64,000 nt of DNA, taken from NCBI RefSeq assembly GCF_000020145.1, contig NC_010644.1:1-64000 (forward strand). The letters run 5' to 3'. Shown piece after piece: positions 1-10,888 of this stretch. A model generated the notes under the pieces. The model had not been told where the DNA came from. It saw nothing but the letters and a program-made list of their open reading frames with translations, and did not search any database. How positions within the stretch are numbered: the first letter of the stretch is position 1; every line of letters starts with the position of its first letter. Origin of the DNA: Elusimicrobium minutum Pei191. Its GTDB lineage: Bacteria; Elusimicrobiota; Elusimicrobia; Elusimicrobiales; Elusimicrobiaceae. A program made the translations under genes and the position numbers.

Positions 1-7
1 TATAAAT

Positions 8-364
8 ATGAAAAAAATTGTAATTATTGAAGATGAACCCTCAATTAACGAAATGTTAAAAATGATGGTTGAAAGACTTGGGCACGAGGCATTAGTTTGC
101 GATAATGGAAGAGAGGCTTTTTCTTTTATTAAAAAACACAAGCCCGATTTAGTCATTCTTGATGTTATGCTTCCCGGAATGGACGGCACAGCCATTGCAA
201 AAGAATTAGGAATTAATGAAGAAACCGCGTCTATTCCAATAATAGTAACTTCCGCTTTGGAGGAATCTAAATCTTTATTTTCCGGGGTTTCTCAGGTTAA
301 GGATTTTATACCCAAACCGTTTACTATTACTAAACTCACTGAAACTATAAACAAATACATCTAA
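8..364 (+). CDS. Single-domain response regulator (CheY-like receiver)
   Basis: This 118-residue protein is a stand-alone receiver domain with no output domain. The acidic pair E8-D9, the phospho-acceptor D52 in the LDVMLPGMDG segment, the switch residues T81-S82 and the conserved lysine K103 in PKPF are all present in family order. Such proteins accept a phosphoryl group from a histidine kinase and act by protein-protein contact. No kinase lies beside it in the window, so its partner and target are unknown. The gene ends just before a strong intrinsic terminator and is transcribed separately from dnaA downstream. The start ATG is only seven bases from the window edge, so its promoter is outside view. 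Confidence 0.9.
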   Translation: MKKIVIIEDEPSINEMLKMMVERLGHEALVCDNGREAFSFIKKHKPDLVILDVMLPGMDGTAIAKELGINEETASIPIIVTSALEESKSLFSGVSQVKDFIPKPFTITKLTETINKYI

Positions 365-376
365 GTACCAAAAGCC

Positions 377-414
377 AAAAAAGCGTATAAAACAACTATT
401 TTATACGCTTTTTT
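377..414 (+). terminator. Intrinsic terminator after the receiver gene
   Basis: A perfect 16-bp inverted repeat (377-392 with 399-414) encloses a 6-nt loop. An A-run on the left arm and a T-run on the right arm give a U-tract for rightward transcription. Confidence 0.9.
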
Positions 415-519
415 GCCCTTTAGGGCCAAAATTTACATTATTTTAACTTACCTAAAATTAAGCACCCTTAAGGCTGTAAAAAATAAAAATGTAAAAAACC
501 TCAAATTCAGCTAAAATAA

Positions 520-528
520 TGATATAAT
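520..528 (+). promoter_or_regulatory. Probable dnaA promoter, extended -10
   Basis: TGATATAAT at 520-528 is a perfect -10 hexamer with the TGn extension. No good -35 is seen at the usual spacing, as is common for extended -10 promoters. A start near 535 would give a leader of about 20 nt before the GTG of dnaA. Confidence 0.45.
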
Positions 529-555
529 AAGCCAAAGGATTATTGGATTAACATT

Positions 556-1914
556 GTGAATAATATTATTAATGAAGATTTAAAAAACCGCATTTTAAAA
601 GAAATGGAAACAGTTTTTGGGGTTGAAGCCTGTGAAACATGGCTTAAACCCCTGTCTCTTTCTTTAAAAAACGATATTCTAACTGTTACTTTACCTAATA
701 AGTTTTGGTCAAAAACTATAGCCGATAAATATGTTCAGGAGGTAAAATCCTCTATAGAAAAAGAACAGGGCGGTGATATACAAATTAAATATGATGTATT
801 GGAAGACACTACCCCTTATAAAAGACCAGAAATTCCCCCTCAGGTTATGGGAGCTAATTATAATGCAAAAATACCGTTTCCAAGCCGTTTAAACCCTAAT
901 TATACTTTTGAAGGTTTTATTGAAGGCCCTTCAAACAGGTTTGCCTACAGGGCGGCCGAAGCCGTCGTAAAAAAATTAGGTGAAAGAGAAAATAACCCCC
1001 TTGTTATATACAGTACGCCCGGTTTAGGTAAAACCCACTTATTACACGCTATAGGAAATAGAATATTAAAAGAAAACCCATACGCTAAAATTTTATACAT
1101 GTCAGGTGAGGAATTTGTAAGTGAATATATAGAATCTTTACAAAACAGAAACCCTGAAGCTTTTAGAAAAAAACACCGCTCGTTAGACTGTTTTTTAATG
1201 GACGATATTCAATTTGTGGCAGGCAAAGAATCCAGCGTGCAGGAATTTTTCTATACATTTAACGCTTTATTTGAATCAAAAAAACAAATTGTTTTAACTT
1301 CTGACAGAACGCCGCAGCAGCTTGGTATTGACCCAAGGTTAAGCTCAAGGCTGCTTTCGGGTATAGTTTCTGAAATTAAAAGACCTGATTTAGAAACAAG
1401 AATAGCTATTTTAAGACAAAAAAGAGATACAAGCAACTTTGATGTTGGCGACGATGTTATTGCTTTTATAGCGGAAGGAGTTCAAGCAAGTATAAGGGAA
1501 TTAGAAGGCTGCCTTTTCAGGCTTACAACCTATTGTAATATTCACGGCGTAACCCCCACTATACCTATAGCAAGGGAAGTTTTGTCTGATATTATAAGTA
1601 TGGAAGAAAAAAGACTTTTAATTAACCCTAACAGTATTAAAAAAGTAGTTTCCAAACATTTTAAGATTGATATTATTGATTTTAATTCAAAAAGGAAAAA
1701 CCATTCTATCGCGTGGCCCAGGCAGATTGCTATGTATTTAGCAACTGAGCTTACAGATATGTCTTTACCGGAAATAGGCCGCGAGTTTGAAAGAGATCAC
1801 AGCACAGTAGTTCACGCAAGGGAAAAAATTAAAGAAGAAATTGAAAATGATCCTTTTTTCGCGGCTCAAATTAACCAGATTATCTCAGATATTAAAGCTG
1901 TGGATAAACGTTAA
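556..1914 (+). CDS. dnaA: Chromosomal replication initiator DnaA
   Basis: DnaA is the AAA+ ATPase that binds DnaA boxes and melts the origin. This copy is 452 residues, normal for the family. The N-terminal domain I (about 1-75) is followed by a short linker. The ATPase core has Walker A in STPGLGKTH, Walker B in FLMDDIQF and a sensor region. Domain IV (about 350-452) carries the helix-turn-helix signature ending [13 protein letters not shown]. The Walker A glycine stretch is slightly unusual (TPGLGKT instead of the common GGVGLGKT). Translation starts at GTG 556, and no upstream in-frame ATG exists before the promoter. The ribosome site is weak (AAAGGA at 534-539, 16 nt away). A DnaA box overlaps its last codons. 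Confidence 0.97.
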
Positions 1915-2085
1915 TTTTTTGTGGATAACAATTAAAACTTAACCACAAAACCGTAAAAATAAAACAAACTGTTAATACTTTCTATAACGTGTGTATAATA
2001 GTTAACAGATTTTTAAAAAAATTGTATTTGTGTATAAACATTATCAACACAATTAACAACACATAATAGTATAAGGAATAATAAG
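1895..2085. other. oriC: Probable chromosomal origin of replication (oriC)
   Basis: The A+T-rich dnaA-dnaN junction holds a cluster of DnaA-box sequences. Two are perfect TGTGGATAA (reverse of TTATCCACA) at 1899-1907, inside the end of dnaA, and 1920-1928. Four more have one mismatch: TTAACCACA 1939-1947, TGTGTATAA 1990-1998 and 2029-2037, and TTATCAACA 2041-2049. The location between dnaA and dnaN is the most common oriC position in bacteria. Strand asymmetry over the whole chromosome was not available to confirm it. Confidence 0.8.
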
Positions 2086-3195
2086 ATGAAGATTAATATA
2101 ACTAAAGAAACTTTTTTGGAAGGACTTTCTGTTGTTCAGGCCGGTGTATCTTCAAGAGCTACATTACCCATTCTTCACAATTTTCTTATGGAAACTGAAA
2201 ACGGTAAAATTAAACTTGTAAGAACTGATATGGAAATGGCTTCAATACATTATATAAAGGCCGAGATATTAGAAGAAGGATCAGTAACAATACCTTTAAA
2301 AGAAGTTTCCGATATTTTAAAAAACCTTCCTAATGATAAAGAAATTAATTTAACTGTTGGTGAGGATAATAAAGTTCACATTAAAAGCGGTAAATCAAAA
2401 TTTTGGGTTATAGGAACACCTAAATCAGAATATCCTTTAATTCCGGAAATAGATAAATCTAATCTTATTAATTTAAAAATAAAAGAAATTCAGGAAATGG
2501 TTGAAAAAACAATATTTTCCTCCTCAACACAGGAAACGAGATATGTTTTAAACGGCCTTCTATGGGTAAAAACGGGAAATAAATTTGAAGTTGTCGCCAC
2601 CGATGGCAGAAGGCTTGCTTTGGCTGTTGATACAATTGAAAGCGACACTAAAGATTTTAAAATTATTATTCCTACTAAAATTTTAAACGAGCTTTTAAGA
2701 TTTTTCTCCATAAATAAACCTTCTGAAGATGATACTTTAGTATTAAGCGTAGCTTCAAACCAGGTAAGTTTTAATATAAAAGAAACAACTTATATTTCCA
2801 GGCTTATTGAAGGTAATTTTCCTAATTATGAGCAGGTTATCCCCAATAAAAAAGTAATGGGTTTTTTATCTGATACAAAAGAAATTTTAGCCTCTACAAA
2901 ACGTGCTAGTCTTTGCGCAAACGAACTTGGCGGCACGGTAAAATATTCTTTAAATAATAATGTTTTAAAAATAACTTCCAATTCTCAAAAAATGGACTTT
3001 TCTGACGAAATGAAAGTTGAATATACAGCCGAACCTTTTGAAATATCTTTTAACCCACAATATGTTTTAGATGTGTTAAAAAATATTTCCACGGAAAAAG
3101 TTGAATTTTCTTTTATTAACGCGGCGCAGCCCGTGTTGATTGAGGAAATAAACAATACAAAATTTAAATACGTAATAATGCCGGTGAGATCGTAA
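2086..3195 (+). CDS. dnaN: DNA polymerase III beta subunit (sliding clamp)
   Basis: This is the ring-shaped processivity clamp that tethers the replicative polymerase and is the docking site for many DNA-handling proteins. At 369 residues it has normal length with three repeated clamp folds. The start MKINITKETFLEGLSVVQ and the end in KFKYVIMPVRS (usual family ending is MPMR or similar) are typical. ATG 2086 is preceded by AAGGAA. The stop codon overlaps the start of the next gene (TAATG at 3193-3197), so it is translationally coupled to the dciA-like gene. Confidence 0.97.
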   Translation: MKINITKETFLEGLSVVQAGVSSRATLPILHNFLMETENGKIKLVRTDMEMASIHYIKAEILEEGSVTIPLKEVSDILKNLPNDKEINLTVGEDNKVHIKSGKSKFWVIGTPKSEYPLIPEIDKSNLINLKIKEIQEMVEKTIFSSSTQETRYVLNGLLWVKTGNKFEVVATDGRRLALAVDTIESDTKDFKIIIPTKILNELLRFFSINKPSEDDTLVLSVASNQVSFNIKETTYISRLIEGNFPNYEQVIPNKKVMGFLSDTKEILASTKRASLCANELGGTVKYSLNNNVLKITSNSQKMDFSDEMKVEYTAEPFEISFNPQYVLDVLKNISTEKVEFSFINAAQPVLIEEINNTKFKYVIMPVRS

Positions 3196-3491
3196 TGAAA
3201 CTTGGCGCCAAACCTCGTAAAATTTGGAACAGTTCGGGTGATTTAAATAATAATTTTAATCCCCTTGCTTTTAAACTTAACAGGTTAATGGTGCTGGGTA
3301 TGGTTTGGGAAAAATTGGCGGGCAAACGCGCTAAATTTTGGATTTTAGACGCCGCCTCAAAAGACGCTGTTTTTATTAAAGTAAAAAATTCTTCCGCTAA
3401 GCTTGAGCTTGCCGGCCATAAGGAAAATTTAATAAAAGAATTAAACAAACATTTTGACAAACCCTGGATTAAAAAAATAGAAATAGTTTAA
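3195..3491 (+). CDS. dciA: DciA-like (DUF721) protein, probable helicase loader
   Basis: This 98-residue protein resembles the DUF721/DciA family. A central VWEKLAGKRAKF segment matches the typical W-x(2,3)-VG region, followed by the V-x-V-x-S-x-A-x-EL core (FIKVKNSSAKLELAGHKENL) and a C-terminal helix-strand unit ending IKKIEIV. DciA is the widespread ancestral protein that helps load the replicative helicase DnaB in bacteria without DnaC or DnaI. Its start overlaps the dnaN stop. recF, often found in this slot, is absent, and gyrB follows after 84 bases. The fold call rests on motif spacing in a fast-evolving family, so it is less certain than its neighbours. Confidence 0.72.
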   Translation: MKLGAKPRKIWNSSGDLNNNFNPLAFKLNRLMVLGMVWEKLAGKRAKFWILDAASKDAVFIKVKNSSAKLELAGHKENLIKELNKHFDKPWIKKIEIV

Positions 3492-3514
3492 AAATTTAAT
3501 AACAGTATAAATAA

Positions 3515-6053
<2,539 letters not shown>

Positions 6054-8660: not shown

Positions 8661-8672
8661 AAAGCAAAAAAT

Positions 8673-8705
8673 AAAAAAGCCCCGCTACCCAAGCGGGGCT
8701 TTTTT
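8673..8705 (+). terminator. Intrinsic terminator after gyrA
   Basis: A 14-bp perfect stem (8673-8686 with 8692-8705) with a 5-nt loop and GC core GCCCCGCT ends in a T-run. Confidence 0.93.
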
Positions 8706-8827
8706 ATTGGGAATATCTTTAATTTTTATACTGCTTATCAAAATATTTCGGTAGAATATATGCACAAAGACATAAACATGTTATATCAGAGCAAAAGAAT
8801 AAATTTTTAAGCATATAGGAAAGAAGA

Positions 8828-10114
8828 ATGCAAAACAATAAGAATACAAAGCAATATATTTATATTGTTCAAGCCTTGTTAGAGCCCTCAAAGTGTAAAA
8901 TAGGAAAAACAAAAGATTTTGAAAGAAGATTGAAAGAATATAACAACATGACAGGAAAATCAAACGAAAATAGTTATCGGTATCTGTTTGCCTGTGAAGT
9001 GAAAGATATGTCGGAATTAGAAAAAGATATTAAAGAGAACTTCTCTGCCCTAAGAGAGCAAAAGAAGAGAGAAATATATTTTTATAATCCAAGCTTGTTT
9101 GATGGTTATGTTAAATTTATAAAAACTCATAAAATGTTTATTAAAGAGATTTTTACAAAAGAGGAAGATAAAAAAATAATAATAAAAATAGTAAAGAAAA
9201 CCACGCCGTCACTTGAAGAAAGAGGGATAACCCGAAAAGATGTAATGCAAAAGGCGCAAAAGGTAGATAATGACGAATTTTATACCAGATTTGAAGATGT
9301 CGAAAAAGAACTTTCACTGTATGATATATCGATTTGGAAAAACAAAATAGTTTTTTGCAATTGCGACGACGCCGTGGACAGCGATAATAAAAAAACATCT
9401 GCGTTTGCCTTGTATTTCATACAAAAATTTAAAGAATTTGAATTGAAAAAACTGATTTGCACTCATTATAGCGGTGTTGTTGATTTGTTTAATCAAGGGG
9501 CAAGCGGGTATATATTTACAAAGGACGGTTTTCGGGAATTTAAGGACTATCCTAAAGGGTATACGGGTAGTTTTGATGACCCTCTATCTTTGAAAATCCT
9601 TAATAAAGAGGCGGATATAGTATGCACAAATCCCCCGTTTTCCCGAGCTAAAGATTTTTGGAGAATGTTAATCGGAAGTTCTAAAAAATTTATAATTATA
9701 TCTAACATATCTAATCCCATAACTCCTGCGTATATTAAATATTTTAGGGAGAATAAAGTATGGGCAGGCTATAACCGTGTGGATAAATACCTCAACCCCA
9801 AACGGGAACTTGTAGAAGCATCCGGACACTGGTATACTAATATTCCTATCCAAGACAGGCCAAAATCTAAAAATTTAAAAATAATCCCGCTAAAAGACGT
9901 GCCCGATAAATATAAAAAGTTTGATGACAATAAAACATTATTAGTAGATAATTGTTATATTCCTGATGATTACAACAAGCCGTTTGCGGTGTCCGCCCGC
10001 CCGATATTAAACGGCTTACTGGAAAAAGGATATAAAATTGTTGAAGATACCCAATATTTTCCGTACGAGAACGGTAAAAAAGGGTTTGGGCGGGTTTTGG
10101 TAGAGAAAATATGA
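8828..10114 (+). CDS. Fusion: T5orf172/GIY-YIG-like domain plus EcoRI-family adenine-N6 DNA methyltransferase
   Basis: The protein has 428 residues and two parts. Residues about 11-95 (YIYIVQALLEPSKCKIGKT, then RRLKEYN) match the layout of T5orf172/MUG113 domains, small GIY-YIG-nuclease relatives found in phage and mobile proteins. Residues about 140-428 resemble the EcoRI adenine-methylase family. They include DNDEFYTRFEDVEKEL, FCNCDDAV, and the catalytic motif N268-P269-P270-F271, which holds the flipped adenine, followed by the FIIISNISNP strand. A clear AGGAAAG precedes ATG 8828. The gene is A-rich compared with gyrA, and no restriction endonuclease gene lies beside it. It may be an orphan methylase, or a fused cleavage-modification protein if the N-terminal domain is catalytic. 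Catalytic residues of that nuclease-like domain cannot be confirmed by eye. Confidence 0.78.
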   Translation: MQNNKNTKQYIYIVQALLEPSKCKIGKTKDFERRLKEYNNMTGKSNENSYRYLFACEVKDMSELEKDIKENFSALREQKKREIYFYNPSLFDGYVKFIKTHKMFIKEIFTKEEDKKIIIKIVKKTTPSLEERGITRKDVMQKAQKVDNDEFYTRFEDVEKELSLYDISIWKNKIVFCNCDDAVDSDNKKTSAFALYFIQKFKEFELKKLICTHYSGVVDLFNQGASGYIFTKDGFREFKDYPKGYTGSFDDPLSLKILNKEADIVCTNPPFSRAKDFWRMLIGSSKKFIIISNISNPITPAYIKYFRENKVWAGYNRVDKYLNPKRELVEASGHWYTNIPIQDRPKSKNLKIIPLKDVPDKYKKFDDNKTLLVDNCYIPDDYNKPFAVSARPILNGLLEKGYKIVEDTQYFPYENGKKGFGRVLVEKI

Positions 10115-10135: not shown

Positions 10136-10888
10136 TTATCTAAACAAATAATCCGCTGATTTTACTTTTTGGTATTTAGCGTATGCTTGCGCGGCTGCCT
10201 TTCTTGCCTTGGCAGAATCTTTGCCTCCGGCCCAACTGTTTAACACCGCTTCTATAACATATCCTTCAGGCGCCATATTGCCGTTTGTTGTCACGTAAGA
10301 CTCCGCGCCTGTTTTTAATATAGCGTCATTAAGATATTTTTTGCTTTGACAGGCCAAAACAACCGCTTTTTTAGAAGATTTTTTCCCTTCGGGGGTATTG
10401 ATAGTAAAATCCATAAGTCCGTTATGCCCCGCGTAAATAATTATATCCGAGGCAGAGCCAAAAGGAATATTTTGTTTTTGATTATCAAGGACGGCTTCTA
10501 ATGAGTTTTTTTGAACTTTGGACAGATAGTTAAAAAAATCTTTAGTGGCGGTTTTTATTTCTTTGCCTTTGTAAGCGTCTAAAATTACCCAATAATCTTT
10601 ATCTTTATGTTTAAAAATAATACGCCTTAAAATATCCGGTGAAATATCCTTTTCTTCACTTACAAAACTCCATTCGGGTGACTTTTTCAAATGCGTTTTA
10701 ACCCCATACATCGCGCCCCAGTAAAGGTTTTGTTCCGGATTGGACCCGTTGCCCAACTTTGCGGGAACAGGGGCTATATTTTGATAAACATTATCGCACA
10801 AAGCCACAATAATGTGGGCGGTTTTAATTTGTGCCTTTAAAGGCAGCGTTAAAAAAAGAAATAAAGGGATAAAAATCAGTTTTTTCAT
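10136..10888 (-). CDS. Secreted protein with caspase-like His/Cys dyad signature
   Basis: This 250-residue protein starts with a signal peptide (MKK, hydrophobic run, cleavage likely after LKAQ near residue 20). The mature part contains DIIIYAGHNGLMDF followed about 30 residues later by KAVVLACQSKKY. A glycine-flanked histidine after a hydrophobic strand and then a cysteine at the end of the next strand is the arrangement of caspase/gingipain/CHAT-type clan CD peptidases. The C-terminal part (TNGNMAPEGYVIEAVLNSW) is helical. I do not recognise a named family, and peptidase activity is inferred only from the dyad layout. It converges on the methyltransferase gene, 21 bases apart. Confidence 0.6.
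   Translation of the reverse strand: MKKLIFIPLFLFLTLPLKAQIKTAHIIVALCDNVYQNIAPVPAKLGNGSNPEQNLYWGAMYGVKTHLKKSPEWSFVSEEKDISPDILRRIIFKHKDKDYWVILDAYKGKEIKTATKDFFNYLSKVQKNSLEAVLDNQKQNIPFGSASDIIIYAGHNGLMDFTINTPEGKKSSKKAVVLACQSKKYLNDAILKTGAESYVTTNGNMAPEGYVIEAVLNSWAGGKDSAKARKAAAQAYAKYQKVKSADYLFR

What the first reader, a model, noticed from the sequence alone, without database searches (positions are those of the whole stretch)
8828..10114. EcoRI-type methylase fused to a GIY-YIG-like domain
A modification methylase domain with NPPF is preceded by a T5orf172-type domain in one chain, with no separate restriction gene. It could be a single-chain restriction-modification or anti-phage protein, or an orphan methylase. 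The gene is A-rich compared with gyrA and lies near tRNA-Cys, consistent with transfer.
Basis: partly seen in the sequence, partly recalled or inferred. Interest (0 to 1): 0.6.

Follow-up and report, generated by a model that had tools for sequence, protein, structure and literature searches.

The report
Mobile nuclease-methylase fusion gene
One gene makes a protein that joins a DNA-cutting-type domain to a DNA-methylating domain; relatives of this fused gene turn up in unrelated bacteria and, in one of them, in eleven scattered copies, so it is probably a one-protein restriction-modification enzyme that moves as a single gene.

Summary
ORF 8828-10114 (+, 428 aa) carries a T5orf172 (GIY-YIG superfamily) domain at residues 9-83 and an EcoRI-type adenine methylase at 140-389, both over Pfam cut-offs. 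Fused homologues exist: in 7 of 340 genomes of its phylum and 6 of 167 of a second phylum (one seen only by its 3' end). One metagenome genome (G340) holds 11 dispersed copies. Copies lie among unrelated neighbours and share only the ORF plus short leaders and tails. One copy splits a junction that is intact in a relative without the gene; one is flanked by a 57-bp direct repeat; one rides in an IS1595-type element with perfect 24-bp inverted repeats. The gene tree rejects one clade per phylum. Both domains are under purifying selection; likely nuclease residues are invariant. Best reading: a single-chain, Type IIG-like restriction-modification protein that spreads as a lone gene. AlphaFold did not fold the nuclease domain confidently, and no activity has been measured. 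New variant of a known kind.

The parts
8828..10114 (+). Fusion gene, 428 aa: T5orf172 (GIY-YIG superfamily) domain + linker + EcoRI-type adenine DNA methyltransferase
8852..9076 (+). T5orf172 / GIY-YIG-like domain, residues 9-83
   Evidence: Pfam PF10544 39.2 bits (cut-off 20), PF13455 31 bits (cut-off 22.3)
8861..9088 (+). Putative nuclease active-site residues: Y12 (8861), K24-I25-G26 in place of YIG (8897), R34 (8927), Y38 (8939), E65 (9020), N87 (9086)
   Evidence: of 20 aligned rows, invariant in those that reach them: Y12/K24/I25/G26 17 of 17, R34 18 of 18, Y38/E65/N87 20 of 20; their roles are assigned by recall and inference
9140..9244 (+). Linker, residues 105-139, the fastest evolving of the four parts compared (median dN/dS 0.26)
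   Evidence: computed on residues 105-137; 132 of 190 pairs usable
9245..9994 (+). EcoRI-type methyltransferase domain, residues 140-389
   Evidence: Pfam PF13651 125.1 bits; PADLOC MTase_II 128.5 bits
9629..9640 (+). NPPF methyltransfer motif, residues 268-271
   Evidence: invariant in 20 of 20 fused rows and in the 34 rows of A3
8670..8708 (.). GC-rich terminator-like hairpin between gyrA and the fusion gene (reported on the - strand), so the gene probably has its own promoter in 8709-8827
   Evidence: that scan gave no promoter-like hit on the + strand upstream of the gene, so the promoter is inferred only

Best explanation
The gene encodes a single-chain restriction-modification protein that works like a Type IIG enzyme. 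The EcoRI-type C-terminal part reads a DNA sequence and methylates an adenine in it; the N-terminal T5orf172/GIY-YIG domain cuts DNA at or near sites that lack the mark. Because cutting and marking share one recognition part, a change of specificity changes both at once, so several diverged copies can live in one genome. The gene travels alone, with its leader, between species and within genomes, sometimes inside an IS element. Shown here: the two domains, the family, its dispersal, purifying selection, invariant likely active-site residues. Inferred: both activities, the shared recognition, diverged specificities, and the role in restricting foreign DNA and keeping itself in the genome.
For: Domains over curated cut-offs; T5orf172 in 5 of 5 fused proteins scanned. 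Likely nuclease residues and NPPF invariant. Median dN/dS 0.13 for the N-domain (84 of 190 pairs usable) and 0.14 for the methylase (114 of 190), so both are kept. None of the fused-type rows listed has an inner stop. 11 copies in G340, one clade at support 90/80; the least methylase dS of any usable pair of the 20 rows is 0.54, so they are not strain variants. Rows of each phylum are rejected as one clade: p-AU 6.4e-5 and 2.8e-5; a cross-phylum pair G086+G492 at 100/100. Insertion: flanks of one G340 copy are 206 nt apart in G369 against 1671 in G340; 57-bp direct repeat around another; IS1595-type element around the G492 copy. A T5orf172 protein, Odn, was shown to cut DNA, lost on E180A (PMC8263062, passages).
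Against: The N-domain was not folded with confidence (block means 38-61 for residues 1-100; mean 44.4 for the domain alone), and the Tyr of YIG is a Lys. GIY-YIG (PF01541) is below its cut-off. The fold search listed no GIY-YIG nuclease among its 50 rows of 978. No target site, methylation or cleavage is known; GAATTC is not avoided in the window (13 found, 11.7 expected). The Type II review describes Type IIG enzymes as having a gamma-class methylation domain and a specificity module (PMC4081073, passages); neither was tested here. Differences between fused and methylase-only proteins are spread over the whole methylase (45 positions), so nothing marks out a recognition region for certain. 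The window genome has a single copy.
Confidence: 0.52

Rival explanations
1. A homing-endonuclease-like selfish gene: the T5orf172 nuclease makes breaks that let the gene copy itself into new places, and the methylase serves mainly to find the target and to protect occupied or own sites.
For: T5orf172 proteins are treated as homing endonucleases of phages, which cluster near essential genes (PMC10448857, passages); many copies here lie beside genes that read as housekeeping genes, as lone ORFs; two G298 copies share the gene from 1 nt before ATG and two G294 copies up to 4 nt after the stop, and nothing recognisable beyond.
Against: No common insertion site was found: the 5' and 3' neighbourhoods of 11 G340 copies are unrelated beyond about 80 and 60 nt and neighbours differ, though two genomes have a copy near gyrB and two near an argD-type gene; the G340 copies are diverged, not homogenised; one copy is an IS1595-type passenger, which needs no homing.
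Confidence: 0.18
2. A regulatory or protective orphan methylase in which the T5orf172 domain only binds DNA or is catalytically dead.
For: Phage and plasmid relatives found match over the methylase part only (10 of 10 phage records; the 30 listed of 59 plasmid records; none covers 80% of the query); the YIG tyrosine is a lysine; single copy in the window genome.
Against: R34, Y38, E65 and N87 invariant and the N-domain under as strong purifying selection as the methylase. Odn, also a T5orf172 protein with an imperfect motif, cuts (PMC8263062, passages).
Confidence: 0.17
3. A defence protein that acts by suicide: the nuclease fires on the cell's own DNA when a phage blocks methylation or degrades the methylase.
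For: PADLOC matches the N-domain to PDC-S57, a defence candidate; the shared chain couples the two parts.
Against: Nothing here separates it from ordinary restriction; PDC-S57 is a candidate label only.
Confidence: 0.08

Closest known systems
Type IIG restriction-modification enzymes (BcgI, MmeI families)
   Same: Cutting and methylating domains in one chain, shared specificity; large numbers per genome are known (up to 20 in Borrelia burgdorferi isolates) (PMC4081073, passages)
   Different: Those in the review have a gamma-class methylation domain and a specificity module; here the cutter is T5orf172/GIY-YIG-like and the methylase is of the compact EcoRI type, 428 aa in all
Eco29kI and its engineered fusion RM.Eco29kI
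   Same: GIY-YIG cutter joined to a methylase works as one chain and restricts phage (PMC3039593, passages)
   Different: Man-made fusion; cytosine methylase; not T5orf172
Slx1-like GIY-YIG nuclease fused to a COG4123 methyltransferase with NPPY (five Lactobacillales)
   Same: Natural GIY-YIG/methylase fusion (PMC1564403, passages)
   Different: Other methylase family, methylase at the N-terminus, other GIY-YIG group
T5orf172 homing endonucleases and Odn of phage ICP1
   Same: Same nuclease family; lone genes near essential genes; Odn is an active nuclease (PMC10448857, PMC8263062, passages)
   Different: DNA-binding part is mostly a zinc-finger-like domain, or RepA_N in Odn; the word methyltransferase does not occur in PMC10448857
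DnmA-YeeB-YeeC gene cluster
   Same: An adenine methylase gene with a T5orf172/GIY-YIG family gene two places downstream (PMC9973331, one passage)
   Different: Separate genes with a helicase between; recognition GACGAG; other layout
wH-GIY-YIG m6A-dependent enzymes near EcoRI-like methylases
   Same: GIY-YIG nuclease linked with an EcoRI-like methylase (four cases) (PMC11037411, passages)
   Different: Separate genes, prefer methylated DNA, no T5orf172 in the text
Mobile restriction-modification genes (Kobayashi and co-workers)
   Same: Insertion with long target duplication, IS-linked movement, links to rearrangements (PMC3031569, PMC4615327, passages)
   Different: Those passages concern systems with separate genes; here one ORF, up to 11 copies per genome

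Membership tests
EcoRI-type adenine methyltransferase (PF13651) | Score over the curated cut-off | tested here: met
   125.1 bits against 26.4
EcoRI-type adenine methyltransferase (PF13651) | NPPF motif and conserved DEFYT | tested here: met
   NPPF in 20 of 20 fused rows; D149-T153 and N268-F271 invariant in the 34 rows of A3
EcoRI-type adenine methyltransferase (PF13651) | Methylates GAATTC | not testable with these tools
   fused proteins differ from 28 methylase-only relatives at 45 positions conserved in the latter, so another target is possible
T5orf172 / GIY-YIG superfamily | Score over the curated cut-off of T5orf172 | tested here: met
   39.2 bits against 20; 5 of 5 proteins match
T5orf172 / GIY-YIG superfamily | Score over the cut-off of GIY-YIG PF01541 | tested here: not met
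   19.4 bits against 22.6; 3 of 5 proteins match at E 0.1 or better
T5orf172 / GIY-YIG superfamily | Catalytic Tyr, Arg, Glu kept | tested here: met
   Y12, R34, E65 invariant, if these are the catalytic residues (assigned by recall); the second motif reads KIG, not YIG
T5orf172 / GIY-YIG superfamily | Nuclease fold | tested here: inconclusive
   low-confidence models, though the order of strands and helices fits; best fold matches of the whole model are methyltransferases, no GIY-YIG nuclease in the 50 rows shown of 978
Type IIG restriction-modification | Cutting and methylating domains in one chain | tested here: met
   domain architecture only
Type IIG restriction-modification | Both activities present, cleavage dependent on or stimulated by AdoMet | not testable with these tools
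   needs purified protein
Type IIG restriction-modification | Gamma-class methylase with specificity module | not tested
   feature stated in PMC4081073 (passages)
Homing endonuclease gene | Insertion at a specific cognate site | tested here: inconclusive
   no shared flank beyond leader and tail among 11 G340 copies; neighbours differ, with two weak coincidences; the target is unknown
IS1595-type passenger gene | Transposase and terminal inverted repeats around the gene | tested here: inconclusive
   met for G492; that repeat is absent from G000 and 9 other genomes at up to 3 mismatches, and no inverted repeat stood out around the window copy (p about 0.1), so not met for the window copy

The most novel reading that the evidence does not exclude
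A self-spreading family of one-gene restriction-modification elements in which the fused GIY-YIG nuclease itself drives dispersal (breaks at unmarked sites, repair that copies the gene), so that the element joins the two known selfish strategies, homing and restriction-modification addiction, in one protein, and has radiated inside a single bacterial chromosome into eleven copies with different recognition sequences.
Probability: 0.2. Interest if true: 0.8.

Novelty: new variant of a known kind. Interest (0 to 1): 0.5.

Why it matters
If the protein both cuts and marks DNA, it is a compact (428 aa) one-chain restriction-modification enzyme and a natural T5orf172/EcoRI-methylase pairing that I did not find described in the literature searches run here (open-licence papers only). 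A genome with eleven diverged copies could be a natural set of enzymes with different targets, and the lone-gene dispersal makes the old idea that restriction-modification genes are selfish mobile units testable with a single protein.

Tried and rejected
Low GC as proof of transfer: weak, since the lowest-GC ORF of the window is the dnaN-like ORF. tRNA-Cys as attachment site: not supported; an ORF lies between, and the best direct repeat around the window copy was reached by 6 of 100 shuffles.

Shared insertion preference (gyrB in G298 and gyrB-gyrA in the window; argD-type genes in G298 and G353): seen, no test made; by a rough estimate of mine a couple of such coincidences are expected by chance, so not claimed.

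Direct repeats: of 15 copies tested (one more skipped for short flanks), two exceeded all 100 shuffles. L114:744-2015 (score 91, 53 of 57 columns) is kept; the only other match above the limit in the loci searched is a weaker hairpin on the same contig (49 against 114). L004:5977-7284 (score 51) is rejected, because the segment recurs as a promoter-like element in other loci (scores 41-49). L039 beat all shuffles (score 31) but was reached by 3 of 100. Inverted repeats: of 16 flank tests (the G492 copy tested twice), four scored at p 0.02 or less (both L114 copies, L004:13586, L110). L114:746 is the terminator hairpin; the other three are short or AT-rich and lie at different distances, so not counted. 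That call's 600-nt windows missed the G492 repeats, which lie further out and were found.

Synteny with G369: 7 of the 11 G340 copies were looked at. Two lie in intervals that are short in G369 (L004:394-1713, and L004:5977-7284, whose interval of 2605 nt is 71 nt in G369 but holds two more ORFs). Three have left and right flanks on different contigs of G369 (C90 second copy, C133, C40). Two stayed unresolved (C122; C90 first copy). A junction without the fusion on L004 (13776/13791) is broken too, so a link to rearrangements is not claimed.

Recognition region: a stretch at 292-303 is conserved in 28 methylase-only rows at 8 of its 12 positions and changed or variable in the fused rows, but this is 8 of 45 such positions spread over residues 140-425 (threshold 80%), so it is a lead only. 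The methylase-only set came from a pattern search, which biases it.

Structure: whole protein mean pLDDT 66.7, good mainly for the methylase; N-domain alone 44.4. PDB by sequence: nothing below E 0.8. Viral contigs: a first scan found none, a second 1 fused locus (L130, beside a phage integrase) among 80 loci kept of 134, a third the same contig again. Phage and plasmid tblastn with the N-domain alone: 2 weak phage hits, no plasmid.

Counts: fused genomes were told from methylase-only ones by a match at 60% identity or more. Own phylum 7 = G000, G086, G246, G294, G298, G302, G308; G246 lacks residues 1-31 and G302 is seen only as pieces at contig edges; the other 16 of 23 genomes with matches are methylase-only. 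Second phylum 6 = G340, G347, G352, G353, G384, G492; G353 is seen as two contig-edge pieces plus one remnant of about 29 aa inside a contig, G384 by its last 94 residues at a contig edge; the other 27 of 33 are methylase-only. G340's 11 copies are 9 complete and 2 whose first 34 codons are cut off at contig ends; the two 5' pieces found (C34, C120) are taken as theirs. In the alignment and selection tests 20 rows spanning at least 350 residues were used, in the tree 23; shorter pieces were left out.

Names: that the 1,643,562-base genome is Elusimicrobium minutum and its phylum Elusimicrobiota is recalled, not from a call; the genome behind L003 (G340) is named as a Chitinivibrionia MAG; its phylum name was not looked up. 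Gene names of neighbours (gyrA, gyrB, dnaN, dnaK, thrS, fusA and others) are read from the sequences by eye. I-TevI residue numbers are recalled.

Full report
What is there. The ORF at 8828-10114 (+) encodes 428 aa. Residues 9-83 match Pfam T5orf172 (39.2 bits, cut-off 20) and 23-84 MUG113; residues 140-389 match EcoRI_methylase (125.1 bits, cut-off 26.4); GIY-YIG PF01541 is reached only at 19.4 of 22.6 bits. PADLOC gives Type II methylase and the defence candidate PDC-S57.

Surroundings. The gene lies behind what reads as dnaA-dnaN-gyrB-gyrA, after a terminator-like hairpin at 8670-8708, and before a 250-aa ORF on the other strand and tRNA-Cys. A same-genus genome has gyrA and the rubrerythrin-like gene in the same order but no fusion between them. 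GC is 0.330, second lowest of 48 ORFs, but the dnaN-like ORF is lower still.

Relatives. The fused protein is present in 7 of 340 genomes of its own phylum and 6 of 167 genomes of the phylum of G340 (one of them seen only by its 3' end), and on one viral contig beside an integrase gene. Phage and plasmid records listed match the methylase part alone (10 of 10 phage records, 30 listed of 59 plasmid records; none covers 80% of the query). In the loci held, every ORF with the N-domain profile also had the methylase unless it ran into a contig end.

Copies. G340, the genome behind L003, has 11 copies (9 complete, 2 cut at contig ends). By distinct flanks G294 has at least 3, G298 and G302 at least 2, G347 and G352 2. 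In metagenome genomes this could be confused by mixed strains, but the neighbours of the copies differ, and the least methylase dS of any usable pair of the 20 full rows is 0.54.

Unit of movement. Two G298 copies agree in 243 of 252 bases from one base before the start codon, and in 21 of the 60 bases before that; two G294 copies agree in 119 of 119 bases up to four bases after the stop codon, and in 23 of the next 60. Both G294 contigs begin at the same place inside the gene, so the 119 bases may be the assembler's overlap; the right-hand boundary stands all the same. Two G302 copies agree in 108 of 109 bases from the start codon. Among 11 G340 copies, similarity above the 99% level of shuffled flanks is seen in 21 of 55 pairs at -80 to -1 and 8 of 55 at +1 to +60, and in 1-3 of 55 in each stretch further out. 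So the unit is the ORF with a short leader and tail.

Insertion. G369, a close relative of G340 by DnaK (88%), has no match to the protein. The flanks of the copy at L004:394-1713 are 206 bases apart in G369 and 1671 in G340: an empty site. The copy at L114:744-2015 stands between two copies of a 57-bp segment (53 of 57 columns agree; score 91, 100 shuffles at most 28), otherwise met in the loci searched only as a weaker hairpin; this is like the insertion with long target duplication described for restriction-modification genes (PMC3031569, passages), but it is one case of 15 copies tested. In G492 the gene lies with an IS1595-type transposase (132.9 bits, cut-off 27) between perfect 24-bp inverted repeats, each found once in that genome and in none of the 10 others searched; by eye no target duplication was seen.

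History. In a tree of 23 rows the rows of the window's phylum are rejected as one clade (p-AU 6.4e-5), as are those of the second phylum (2.8e-5); the 11 G340 rows form one side of a branch with support 90/80, which is not starred. The copy of G086, which is in the window genome's own family, pairs with G492 of the other phylum (100/100). The simplest account is transfer between phyla and spread inside one genome. The window row itself has no starred neighbour.

Function. Median dN/dS is 0.13 for the N-domain and 0.14 for the methylase (84 and 114 usable of 190 pairs; the others saturated or too short), 0.26 for the linker. Y12, R34, Y38, E65 and N87 are invariant in the rows that reach them, as are NPPF and the CNCDD segment. 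By recall, R34/Y38/E65/N87 correspond to Arg27, His31, Glu75 and Asn90 of I-TevI; YIG is replaced by KIG. The T5orf172 protein Odn cuts DNA and needs its glutamate although its motif is imperfect (PMC8263062, passages). Against this, neither structure model gives a confident N-domain.

Specificity. At 45 methylase positions conserved in 28 methylase-only relatives (80% or more) the fused family has another consensus; 8 of them lie at 292-303, behind NPPF. Since the differences are spread over the domain, this shows a separate family rather than a recognition region. That the copies have different targets is inference; nothing was measured.

Verdict. The most likely reading is a Type IIG-like one-chain restriction-modification protein moving as a lone gene (0.52). 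Rivals: homing-type selfish gene (0.18), orphan methylase with dead nuclease (0.17), suicidal defence (0.08). It is a new variant of a known kind: GIY-YIG/methylase fusions (PMC1564403, PMC3039593), mobile restriction-modification genes and many one-chain enzymes per genome are each known; this pairing, at this copy number, I did not find in the searches, which cover open-licence papers only.

Noticed in passing
window 10136-10888 (-): 250-aa ORF with a signal-peptide-like start and no family above cut-off in Pfam or NCBIfam, next to the fusion gene in the variable gyrA-rubrerythrin interval.
   Followed up: partly
L115 (same-genus genome G078), 1-5267: The gyrA-rubrerythrin interval holds pilin-like ORFs and a tRNA-Cys on the strand opposite to the window's, so its content differs between two genomes of one genus.
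   Followed up: partly
L004:2385-4275: An N6_N4 methylase (119.5 bits) and an ORF without family lie between a lolA-like gene and an IMPDH-like gene in G340; the matching flanks are 2015 bases apart there and 163 in G369, so this looks like another inserted restriction-modification-like pair.
   Followed up: partly
L041:1808-3996: In G298 one fusion copy begins on the stop codon of a PADLOC Type II restriction gene that follows a methylase gene.
   Followed up: partly
L130:2190-5311: On an IMG/VR contig the fusion gene lies beside a tyrosine integrase, at what looks like a prophage edge.
   Followed up: partly
L127:3480-3563 (G353): A piece of about 29 residues of the fusion gene's end inside a contig, the only decayed remnant seen.
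   Followed up: no
L038:1355-2260: Beside the G086 copy stands a DUF2971 protein that also matches the defence candidate PDC-S31.
   Followed up: no
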